DNA of 64,000 nucleotides from Patulibacter minatonensis DSM 18081 (lineage in GTDB: Bacteria > Actinomycetota > Thermoleophilia > Solirubrobacterales > Solirubrobacteraceae), in contig NZ_KI912613.1 of NCBI RefSeq assembly GCF_000519325.1, positions 792,935-856,934 of the forward strand, read 5' to 3'. The notes beneath the pieces were generated by a model, which saw only the letters and a list, made by a program, of their open reading frames with translations, was not told the DNA's origin and searched no databases. Numbering within the stretch: position 1 is the stretch's first letter; the number at the start of each line of letters is the position of its first letter. A program made the translations under genes and the position numbers. Shown one piece after another: positions 19,381 to 22,884 of the stretch.

Positions 19381-21888
19381 CTAGTCGCCCTTGCCGGCCT
19401 TCTTGGTCTTGATGGCGGACTTCGAGACGCCGTCGGACACCTCGGGGTTCGTGATCTCGCCGATGCGGTCGATGAGCTTGATCCACTGGCCCGGCTCCAG
19501 CAGCTGCTGGACCTGCTTGCCGAGCTCGGCGCTGTTGGTGCCCTCCGGCTTGAAGCCGACGTGGATGTGGTCGTCGTGGTCGGGCAGCGACATCGTGTTG
19601 TCCGTGCCCGGGAAGGTCATCAGGGAGATGATCTGGTGCGGCTTCATCGTGCCCTGCAGTTGCAGCAGCTGCCGGATCGTGGAGTCCGTGATCGTGCCCT
19701 TGCCCTGCGTCTTCGGCGTGATCGTGATGCCGTTGACGGACGCGATGTCCATCGCGTTGCCGGTCGAGTGCTCCGACACGTTGCCCGAGGCGGTCATCTT
19801 GCCGTGGCCGGAGCGCAGCGACGAGATCGTCAGGCGCAGGCCCGACGTCGTCAGGTACTCCATCGTCGCGAGCACGCGACGGTCGATGGCGCCGGCGGCG
19901 ATGTCGCGGCGGCCCTCCTCGTAGATGCCGAGGTTGCGGTCCGACAGCACGCGCTGCTGGAGCTGCTCCTTGCTCATCAGCAGGACCTGGCCGGCGGTGG
20001 CGGAGCCCTCGCCGAACAGCGGGTTGGTGCCCTTGGCGCGGTAGACCGCCGTGGACTCCAGGAGCTTCCAGCCGTCGAGGATCGGCTTCGGGTCGACGCG
20101 GGGCGAGCCCTTGCCGGCGGGGTGCACCTCGAACTGCAGGTGCGGCGACTTCGTCGAGTCCTTCTGCTTGCCGATGCGGCCGAGGACGGTGCCGGCCATG
20201 ACCTTGGCGCCCTTCTTCAGGCGCTTGAGGTTCACGTCCTTCTTGTCCCAGCCGTTCAGCGCGATGTCGGACGTGCCGTCCTCGAGCTGCGCGTTGGCGA
20301 GCTGCTCCGCGCCGCCGTTCTTCTTCGCCAGCGGGCGCGCGGGGTTCGCGAACAGGGTGTCGCGGGCGGACTGGACCGTGTCGGCGATCCCGCCCTGGTC
20401 GACGACGGGCGCCTCGGGCGTCACCGGGTCGGGTGCCGCCTGCGGGGCGGCCTGCTGGCCGGCCGACGCGGCCTTCGTCGGCACGGGGTCCTTCGCCTTC
20501 GCGATGCGCTCCAGGCGGCGGGCCTCGGCCTTCTCGGCCTTCTTCATCGCGCCGCGCTTGGGCACGGGGTAGAAGTGCGCGACGGTCTTCAGGTTGCCGT
20601 ACGTGTACGTGTTGCCGTAGACGTCCCGCAGCATCACGAACCTGCCCAGGCGCGGGTTCTTGCCGACCTTGAGGATCCGGCCGTCCTGCGCGGCGACCGC
20701 ACCGGCCCCGGCGCGGGAGAAGATCGAGATCTGGCGCTGCGCACCGGAGTTGATGACCTTCGCGGCGTTGCCCTTCTTCGTCCGCGCGCGGGCCTTCTTC
20801 GACGTGTCGTCGCCGGCGTACCGCGACTTCGCGGCGACCGGGAACACGCCCTGCGTCAGACCGGTCAGCGAGCTCACGAGATCCGGCGGCAGACCACCGA
20901 TCAGGCGCGAGCGCAGCATCACCGAGTCGACGTACCAGTCGGCGTGGTTGTAGGCGAAGATCGCCTTCTTGATGTTCTTCTCCCCGCCGGCCGCGCGGAG
21001 GTACCGGGCGGCCGCGAAGATCGCGTCGACCGGGTTGTACGGGTCGGCGGAGCCGTCGTTGTTGGCGTCGACGCCGTAGCCCTTCCACGTGGCGGGCATG
21101 AACTGCATCCAGCCCTCGGCGCCCGCGGAGGACACCGACAGGTTGCGGCCGTAGTCGGTCTCGATCTCGTTGATCGCGGCCAGGGTCTCCCACGGGATCC
21201 CGTACTGGGCACCGGCGGCCTGGTAGATCGGCAGCAGGAACGGCGGGATCCGGAACTTGTCGATGAAGAAGTTCGGGACGCCGCGCGGTGCCGCGCCCGG
21301 CGTGGCGAGCGAGAACGTCGGATCCGCCGGGGTCGGCGCGCCGCCCGCGTCGCGGGTCGTCGTGCCGTCGGGGCCGGTCTCGGCGCCACCGCTGTCGACC
21401 GACGCCGCGGCGGCGGCGCGCGCGGCGCGACGCGCCTTGCGGGCCTTCGAGCCCTTCTTGCCCGACGTGCCGGTGACCTGGTCGACGACGTCCTCGATCG
21501 ACTTCGTCGACGGGGCCTTCTGCTTCTTGCGCTTCTTGCCGGGCGTCGCGGGCGCGGCGCCCGTCGTCGTCGCCGGCGCGGCGTCCGTCGTGCCCGCGGG
21601 TGCCGCGGGGGTCGACGGCGTCGGAGCGGCCTCCGTGGTCGACGGGGCGGGCGTCGTCGCCGGCCCCGGGCCCGTGACCTTCACCACGAGGCCGCCGAGG
21701 TCGGGCAGCGGAATCTGGTCGATGGGCGTGCCTGGGGGCACGTCCACGTTGATCTGCAGCACCGTCCCGCCCGCCAGGGTGACGGTGAGGGTCCGCGACT
21801 CCGCTGACGCGCTCGAGGCAGCGCCGAACCCGGCGGCCACCACCCCCGCGGTCGACAGGCCCACTGCGATCTTGGTCTTCCGACTCAC
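19381..21888 (-). CDS. Secreted three-domain cell-wall hydrolase (SLT + M23-like + M15-like)
   Basis: 835 residues from GTG 21888, with GGAGAG 5-10 nt upstream. Signal peptide about 1-29 (KIAVGLSTAGVVAAGFGAASSASA). Next come an N-terminal segment and a Pro/Thr/Ala-rich linker with Lys/Arg clusters. An MltB-like lytic transglycosylase domain (INEIETDYGRN near 239, GAEGWMQFMPATW, DPYNPVDAIFAAARYL) follows. Then an M23-like lysostaphin-fold domain has HLQFEVH near 584, lacking the usual second His of HxH. A C-terminal M15-like carboxypeptidase domain has HSTGNAMDI near 709 and HDDHIHVGF near 772. It probably remodels peptidoglycan outside the membrane; the M23 part may be inactive. Confidence 0.85.
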   Translation of the reverse strand: MSRKTKIAVGLSTAGVVAAGFGAASSASAESRTLTVTLAGGTVLQINVDVPPGTPIDQIPLPDLGGLVVKVTGPGPATTPAPSTTEAAPTPSTPAAPAGTTDAAPATTTGAAPATPGKKRKKQKAPSTKSIEDVVDQVTGTSGKKGSKARKARRAARAAAAASVDSGGAETGPDGTTTRDAGGAPTPADPTFSLATPGAAPRGVPNFFIDKFRIPPFLLPIYQAAGAQYGIPWETLAAINEIETDYGRNLSVSSAGAEGWMQFMPATWKGYGVDANNDGSADPYNPVDAIFAAARYLRAAGGEKNIKKAIFAYNHADWYVDSVMLRSRLIGGLPPDLVSSLTGLTQGVFPVAAKSRYAGDDTSKKARARTKKGNAAKVINSGAQRQISIFSRAGAGAVAAQDGRILKVGKNPRLGRFVMLRDVYGNTYTYGNLKTVAHFYPVPKRGAMKKAEKAEARRLERIAKAKDPVPTKAASAGQQAAPQAAPDPVTPEAPVVDQGGIADTVQSARDTLFANPARPLAKKNGGAEQLANAQLEDGTSDIALNGWDKKDVNLKRLKKGAKVMAGTVLGRIGKQKDSTKSPHLQFEVHPAGKGSPRVDPKPILDGWKLLESTAVYRAKGTNPLFGEGSATAGQVLLMSKEQLQQRVLSDRNLGIYEEGRRDIAAGAIDRRVLATMEYLTTSGLRLTISSLRSGHGKMTASGNVSEHSTGNAMDIASVNGITITPKTQGKGTITDSTIRQLLQLQGTMKPHQIISLMTFPGTDNTMSLPDHDDHIHVGFKPEGTNSAELGKQVQQLLEPGQWIKLIDRIGEITNPEVSDGVSKSAIKTKKAGKGD

Positions 21889-21941
21889 GTGACTCTCTCC
21901 AGAACCCTCAGGTGCGCGTTGCGACGTTCGTGCCTCCGGGA

Positions 21942-22048
21942 CGACTGGGCCCCGGTACTGCTCCGGACACGGGCGCCGCCCGCGTTGCTCCGATCCCGAC
22001 CTTCGCCGCACCCGCCGGAGCTCCTCCGGTCGCCGCGTCGCCCAGTCG
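21942..22048 (-). promoter_or_regulatory. Structured 5' leader of the wall hydrolase gene, possible riboswitch
   Basis: In the transcript a 9-bp closing stem (CGACTGGGC from 22040-22048 with GCCCAGTCG from 21942-21950) encloses 89 nt. Inside are a perfect CCGGAG/CTCCGG hairpin and an 8-bp hairpin ACGCGGGC/GCCCGTGT, plus two CGGAGCA repeats. The leader sits between the predicted promoter and the GTG. In many actinobacteria, wall hydrolase genes follow c-di-AMP (ydaO) riboswitches, but I do not see that motif's conserved GUGAAU or CCGUCAGCU blocks, so the class is unknown. Confidence 0.45.
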
Positions 22049-22066
22049 GGCCATGTTCACTGTGGC

Positions 22067-22096
22067 ACCGTACGGGATGTGCATCACACAAGGCAA
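22067..22096 (-). promoter_or_regulatory. Sigma70-like promoter of the wall hydrolase gene
   Basis: TTGCCT (22091-22096), 18-bp spacer, TACGGT (22067-22072) on the minus strand. Start of transcription would be near 22060, giving a leader of about 170 nt. Confidence 0.4.
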
Positions 22097-22179
22097 CCAC
22101 CCGGACGGAGCGTTGCTATCCCCCAAAGGGCGTAGTCCACCGGTCCGGATCCCCCTGGGACCTGCGTGGGGGCGCGCAT

Positions 22180-22884
22180 CTACGGCTCGAGCATCGAGGT
22201 GCACATCCAGAACGCCTCGTCGATGCGCATCTGCGTGACCGCGCGCGGCTTGATCGAGTAGAGGACGACGTCGGTCGTCTCCCGGCCGATCGCCCGGAGC
22301 GACCGCGGCTCGCGACACAGCTCGGCGACGATCCCGTGGTCGTCGGCGACCACCAGGTGGCCGACCGTGATGTCCGGGTCCATGCCCCGCGGGACGGGGA
22401 TCTCGCCGGCGAGGCTGCGCCGGATGCCGAGCTCCCCGGAGATCAGCCCCGCGTCGACCGCCCAGATCGGGATGCCGGTCTCCGCGAGCGTGATCGTGAG
22501 CGCGTCGGCGGGGATGCCGATGTGCTGGAAGCCACCGCGGAGGAGCCGTTCGAAGTACGCCTCCTCCATCGGGGGACGGTCGTCGTCCGGATTGCGCCCG
22601 ACGCTGCGGAACAGCTCGCGGTACGCCGCGGGCGCCTCGGAGTTGTTCGTGCGCAGGAGGTCGATGCCGCGGACGCTCGTGGAGAGGTGGCGCAGGCGCT
22701 GCTTCGCCCACTCCGGGCTGCGCGTCGTGACCGTGACCGGGCTGCGGAGGTGCACGAGCTCGAGCCCGGGCAGCCGTTCGGCGACGTCGGACGCGATCCA
22801 CCCCTTGTCGGGGCGCCGCCCGTGGCGGATGACCGTGTCGTCGAACTGCTGCGGGACGTCGTTGGGGTCGCGGTGGACGCCCAC
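22180..22884 (-). CDS. B3/B4 tRNA-binding (editing-like) domain protein
   Basis: 234 residues. The segment from about 85 on (AYRELFRSVGRNPDDDRPPMEEAYFERLLRG; ALTITLAETGIPIWAVDAG; GIRRSLAGEIPVPRG; VVADDHGIVAELC) matches the stand-alone B3/B4 fold of phenylalanyl-tRNA synthetase beta subunits. Such free-standing proteins are suspected aminoacyl-tRNA deacylases, unproved here. GTG 22884 has only a weak GGTGAG site. It has no signal peptide. The 118-bp gap to the ABC ATPase gene allows cotranscription. Confidence 0.65.
   Translation of the reverse strand: MGVHRDPNDVPQQFDDTVIRHGRRPDKGWIASDVAERLPGLELVHLRSPVTVTTRSPEWAKQRLRHLSTSVRGIDLLRTNNSEAPAAYRELFRSVGRNPDDDRPPMEEAYFERLLRGGFQHIGIPADALTITLAETGIPIWAVDAGLISGELGIRRSLAGEIPVPRGMDPDITVGHLVVADDHGIVAELCREPRSLRAIGRETTDVVLYSIKPRAVTQMRIDEAFWMCTSMLEP

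What the first reader, a model, noticed from the sequence alone, without database searches (positions are those of the whole stretch)
21942..22048. Structured leader RNA of the wall hydrolase gene without a known class
A 9-bp closing helix encloses two further perfect hairpins and repeated CGGAGCA blocks, right where c-di-AMP riboswitches often control wall hydrolases. The known consensus blocks are not visible.
Basis: partly seen in the sequence, partly recalled or inferred. Interest (0 to 1): 0.6.

Follow-up and report, generated by a model that had tools for sequence, protein, structure and literature searches.

The report
Two-hairpin leader before wall hydrolase
In front of a cell-wall-cutting enzyme gene of a Patulibacter-like bacterium lies a roughly 170-base untranslated leader that probably folds into two tandem hairpins also kept in three relatives; it matches no catalogued RNA family, shows no sign of being a metabolite sensor, and most likely tunes mRNA lifetime or translation.

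Summary
The inverted repeats reported at 21942-22048 are really there, on the minus strand, in the 5' leader of a lytic-transglycosylase/M23 wall hydrolase (GTG start 21888). The drawn fold is probably wrong. About 9.5% of 107-nt windows here contain a 9-bp inverted repeat that good. In the full leader the closing helix has pairing probability 0.002, and it breaks in relatives without covariation. The CGGAGCA repeat is not conserved. Rfam gives nothing, while the same genome carries six true c-di-AMP riboswitches elsewhere.

Three relatives carry the same promoter and a leader of the same length (166-167 nt from a conserved ATGGCCCG to the start codon) at 53-59% identity. The alignment supports two tandem hairpins instead: I at 22052-21992 and II at 21984-21915. 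Support is moderate: hairpin II has compensatory changes (p about 0.006 against refolded shuffles), hairpin I folds better than shuffles in every species (p about 0.01), but whole-leader tests are not significant. Loops are not conserved, no terminator is present, and the upstream ATG frame is not coding. Best reading: a small-clade structural leader acting on mRNA stability or ribosome access, beneath a more strongly conserved promoter/operator. A new riboswitch class is unlikely.

The parts
22093..22116 (-). dyad GCAAC-N14-GTTGC overlapping the -35 region; candidate operator
   Evidence: conserved in the window and 3 relatives; single good copy in the genome; operator role inferred
22067..22096 (-). 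probable promoter: TTGCCT (22096-22091), 18-nt spacer, TACGGT (22072-22067)
   Evidence: among the most conserved parts of the intergenic region (13-14 of 20 columns invariant); found in 3 of 8 genus genomes, one site each, at up to 3 mismatches; not a strict sigma-70 consensus; start site about 22060 inferred
22047..22054 (-). conserved ATGGCCCG at the 5' end of the leader; GGCCCG is the 5' strand of hairpin I; the ATG opens no conserved reading frame
   Evidence: invariant in 4 species; reading-frame tests negative
21992..22052 (-). hairpin I, GGCCCGACT...GGTCGGGATC, apical hairpin CCGGAG/CTCCGG
   Evidence: folds better than dinucleotide shuffles in all four species, z -2.5, -2.8, -4.5, -2.1; background p about 0.009; pairing probability about 0.76 in the full leader
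21915..21984 (-). hairpin II, CGCG...CGCG outer helix, directly upstream of the ribosome-binding site
   Evidence: 21 consensus pairs against 11.4 in column-shuffled refolded alignments, 11 compensated cells against 3.7, p 0.006; helix columns
21895..21900 (-). GGAGAG Shine-Dalgarno-like sequence
   Evidence: TGGAGAG invariant in 4 species; role inferred
19381..21888 (-). secreted wall hydrolase, lytic transglycosylase (SLT) + peptidase M23, GTG start at 21888
   Evidence: Pfam SLT, SLT_2, Peptidase_M23; translation; N-terminus conserved from VSRKTK onwards in relatives

Best explanation
The region is the untranslated leader of the wall hydrolase mRNA. Transcription starts near 22060, so hairpin I sits within about ten bases of the 5' end and hairpin II ends about fifteen bases before the Shine-Dalgarno sequence. 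The conserved thing is the folded shape and total length, not the loops, which points to a mechanical role: the 5' hairpin shields the transcript from 5'-end-dependent RNases and hairpin II sets ribosome access, giving this duplicated hydrolase gene a fixed, post-transcriptional setting. Switching on and off is probably done by a protein at the conserved promoter/operator upstream. Shown: conserved promoter block, conserved leader length, absence of an Rfam match. Moderately supported: the two hairpins. Inferred: transcription start, RNase protection, ribosome access, operator.
For: Leader of 166-167 nt in four species despite 53-59% identity between the window and the others. Hairpin I and II segments fold better than dinucleotide shuffles in every species, pooled z about -6 and -5; p about 0.009 for hairpin I against 5400 windows of this region, allowing for position. 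Hairpin II keeps pairing through double changes, p 0.006 after a refolding null. The window's own predicted fold, scored on relatives without refitting, keeps more pairs than a substitution-matched null, p 0.004, 0.027, 0.023. Two-hairpin consensus: 11 pairs with double changes, 0 of 500 shuffles. No terminator; the upstream promoter block is more conserved than the leader.
Against: Only four sequences, two of them close. The whole-leader alignment is not more stable than column-shuffled alignments (z about -0.25, energy p 0.34, double-changed cells p 0.05). Full leaders of the window and of L067 have no excess stability (z +0.7 and -0.5). Segment ends were taken from the consensus fold, which favours it. 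Reverse transfers from relatives are mostly not significant. Several tests were tried, so single p values near 0.01 are weaker than they look. No data on RNA levels or start sites.
Confidence: 0.45

Rival explanations
1. The leader is mainly a GC-rich spacer between a conserved promoter and the start codon; its folds are what any 75% GC RNA would show, and shared length and end blocks reflect recent common ancestry.
For: Whole-leader stability at chance in two of four species and whole-alignment energy at chance; parts of the interior with 3-5 invariant columns of 20, near the unconserved flank.
Against: Per-hairpin and compensatory tests; only single-base net length differences at 53-59% identity.
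Confidence: 0.35
2. It is an undescribed riboswitch class, sensing a wall- or osmosis-related metabolite and controlling translation of the hydrolase.
For: Long, probably structured leader before a wall hydrolase; in Actinobacteria such genes are typical c-di-AMP riboswitch targets (PMC9960051), and this genome has six of those before secreted wall-active-looking genes.
Against: No conserved loop or junction sequence even within one clade (about 8 of 46 interior columns of hairpin I invariant); one copy in the genome; found only with this gene in four species; no terminator and no consistent alternative pairing of the Shine-Dalgarno region.
Confidence: 0.06
3. A diverged c-di-AMP (ydaO-yuaA) riboswitch.
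For: Target gene type; c-di-AMP riboswitches are common in this genome.
Against: No hit to RF00379 or any other family up to E=10 on the region, nor a relevant hit in relatives' leaders, while true copies score 61-75 bits in the same genome.
Confidence: 0.01
4. A leader-peptide attenuator starting at the conserved ATG (22054).
For: ATGGCCCG invariant in four species, close to the predicted start site.
Against: Substitutions spread evenly over codon positions (5, 8, 5 between L068 and L069), the frame ends differently between species and no peptide is shared by all beyond the first residues; no terminator.
Confidence: 0.04
5. The relevant element is DNA, not RNA: the promoter and its GCAAC-N14-GTTGC dyad bind a regulator, and the leader is incidental.
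For: The promoter block is the most conserved stretch: 12-14 of 20 columns invariant against 3-9 in the leader interior.
Against: Does not account for hairpin II compensation; not exclusive of the best explanation.
Confidence: 0.09

Closest known systems
c-di-AMP riboswitch (ydaO-yuaA, RF00379) of actinobacterial wall hydrolase genes
   Same: Long leader without intrinsic terminator before a secreted wall hydrolase; one such actinobacterial switch is reported to act on translation in C. glutamicum (PMC9960051).
   Different: No sequence or structure match at E up to 10; two simple tandem hairpins rather than the ydaO fold; no conserved core.
Stabilising 5' stem-loop leaders (ompA type; from general knowledge, not tested)
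   Same: Hairpin near the 5' end, structure kept while sequence drifts, fixed distance to the ribosome-binding site.
   Different: About ten unpaired bases before hairpin I; effect on decay untested; no sequence relationship.
Paralogous SLT-M23 wall hydrolase genes of the same genus (e.g. G000 5292518, L049)
   Same: Same protein family and a similar TAxxGT-type promoter motif.
   Different: No ATGGCCCG block in their upstream regions and no convincing match to model R1.

Membership tests
c-di-AMP riboswitch RF00379 | match to the covariance model over its gathering score (38 bits) | tested here: not met
   no match up to E=10 in 21850-22200; six true copies elsewhere in the genome
GEMM-I c-di-GMP riboswitch RF01051 and other Rfam families | match to any of 4227 covariance models | tested here: not met
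   relatives' loci gave only two chance-level hits
Riboswitch (general) | conserved aptamer core in loops or junctions | tested here: not met
   loop columns near background conservation across four species
Riboswitch (general) | ligand binding | not testable with these tools
   needs in-line probing
Structured cis-regulatory leader | secondary structure conserved with compensatory changes | tested here: inconclusive
   hairpin II p 0.006 and hairpin I p about 0.01, whole leader not significant
Transcription attenuator | intrinsic terminator in the leader | tested here: not met
   none found
Leader peptide | conserved upstream reading frame | tested here: not met
   no codon-position bias, frame not kept
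Stabilising 5' stem-loop | longer mRNA half-life dependent on the hairpin | not testable with these tools
   needs decay measurement

The most novel reading that the evidence does not exclude
A previously undescribed translational riboswitch or protein-binding leader class, restricted to one Patulibacter clade, that controls a duplicated SLT-M23 wall hydrolase in parallel to the c-di-AMP riboswitches of the other wall-active genes.
Probability: 0.06. Interest if true: 0.6.

Novelty: new member of a known kind. Interest (0 to 1): 0.27.

Why it matters
If the hairpins are real, one genome would use two unrelated leader types for its wall hydrolases: c-di-AMP riboswitches for at least six genes and this structural leader for a duplicated SLT-M23 gene. 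That would be a modest example of how a gene copy acquires its own post-transcriptional control. It also shows that a striking 9-bp inverted repeat in 75% GC DNA is not evidence by itself.

Tried and rejected
Rfam at gathering score and at E<=10: nothing. BLAST matches of the leader elsewhere in the genome (L002, L003): short GC-rich matches, apparently in coding sequence, without the context. Upstream reading frame: rejected. N-terminal extension of the hydrolase through the leader (ORF listing start at 22011): the extension is not conserved, so the start at 21888 is kept. Promoter-dyad search for a regulon in the genome: only this site rises above the reversed control. Covariance model R1: only this leader in the genome at E<=1 and no convincing extra copies in fetched loci. 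Model searches over genus and family failed on the server. Literature: one paper holds both Patulibacter and riboswitch, and by its title and abstract it is not about this.

Full report
Setting. The window lies in a 5.52 Mb single-contig genome; the relatives that carry this gene include a Patulibacter metagenome genome and a Solirubrobacterales one. The feature is on the minus strand, between a B3/4-domain gene ending at 22180 and a gene starting with GTG at 21888 that encodes a protein with a signal-peptide-like N-terminus and SLT lytic transglycosylase and M23 peptidase domains. The genus carries paralogues of this hydrolase; this copy, starting VSRKTKIAVGLSTAG, was found in the window genome, G002 (= L068), G007 (= L069) and L067 only.

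The observation. Their folding energy is ordinary: z -1.64 on the transcribed strand and -1.87 on the other. In this 64 kb window, 9-bp inverted repeats within 107 nt occur 2.2 times per kb and 9.5% of 107-nt windows hold one. In the full leader the closing helix has pairing probability about 0.002, and forcing it costs 4.6 kcal/mol against the best fold. Across relatives it pairs no better than shuffled letters. It also shares bases with the helix that the comparison favours.

Known classes. No Rfam family reaches its cut-off anywhere in the window, and nothing reaches E=10 in 21850-22200. The c-di-AMP model finds six copies above cut-off and one below it elsewhere in the same genome. All seven stand before apparently secreted proteins that I read, from sequence and without a domain search, as M23-like, Rpf-like, NlpC/P60-like and RlpA-like wall-active proteins. 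In Actinobacteria these switches usually stand before wall genes, and one has been reported to act on translation (PMC9960051).

What is conserved. Four species share a promoter block: a GCAAC-N14-GTTGC dyad, TTGCCT-18-TACGGT in the window, then ATGGCCCG. It is followed by a leader of 166 or 167 nt (counted from that ATG) to the start codon. The promoter block has 12-14 invariant columns of 20, the leader interior 3-9, the flank further upstream 1-4. The dyad stands alone in the genome above the reversed control, and the promoter pattern occurs once each in three of eight genus genomes, at this gene. The window leader is 53-59% identical to the others; L068 and L069 are 82% identical to each other.

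Two hairpins. The alignment consensus is hairpin I (22052-21992) and hairpin II (21984-21915), with a weak third one over the bases before the Shine-Dalgarno sequence. Evidence for: 11 pairs with compensated double changes, 0 of 500 shuffles (this control is lenient because the fold was derived from the data). With refolding of column-shuffled alignments, hairpin II stays significant (21 pairs against 11.4, none of 500 shuffles reaching it; 11 compensated cells against 3.7, p 0.006), hairpin I alone does not. Each hairpin segment folds better on average than its dinucleotide shuffles in all four species, at p 0.05 or below for hairpin I in all and for hairpin II in two, with the other two at 0.054 and 0.072. 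The hairpin I result has p about 0.009 against background windows, allowing for position but not for segment length or shared ancestry. The window's own predicted fold, transferred without refitting, keeps more pairs in L067, L068 and L069 than expected (p 0.004, 0.027, 0.023). Evidence against: the whole-leader alignment energy is at chance, whole leaders of two species have no excess stability, the reverse transfers are mostly not significant, several tests were tried, and there are only four sequences. I put the hairpins' reality at about 0.6.

Mechanism. Nothing resembles an aptamer: loops vary even between these close relatives, there is one copy in the genome, and there is no terminator. 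The upstream ATG does not open a coding frame: substitutions fall evenly on codon positions and the frame ends differently between species. Shape and length are kept while sequence drifts, with one hairpin near the predicted 5' end and one just before the ribosome-binding site. That fits a role in transcript protection and ribosome access, with on/off control at the promoter. The start site, RNase protection and ribosome access are inferred, not shown. The main rival is that the leader is a GC-rich spacer and only the promoter matters.

Verdict. A probably real but modest structured leader of a small clade, not a known family, not the fold drawn, and not a good riboswitch candidate.

Noticed in passing
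genome loci L004-L009 (over cut-off), L010 (below cut-off): Seven c-di-AMP riboswitch matches in this genome, six over cut-off, each upstream of an apparently secreted protein that reads as wall-active (M23-like, Rpf-like, NlpC/P60-like, RlpA-like). A strikingly consistent set for one genome.
   Followed up: partly
22093-22116: Conserved GCAAC-N14-GTTGC dyad overlapping the -35 region, a likely operator of an unidentified regulator; single site in the genome.
   Followed up: partly
22119-22136: Conserved block CTACGCCCTTTGGGGGAT just upstream of the dyad, also kept in the relatives; no function assigned.
   Followed up: no
19381-21888 and G000:C1:5292518-5293072: SLT-M23 wall hydrolase paralogues in this genus; the window copy with its long leader was found in only some of the species.
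   Followed up: partly
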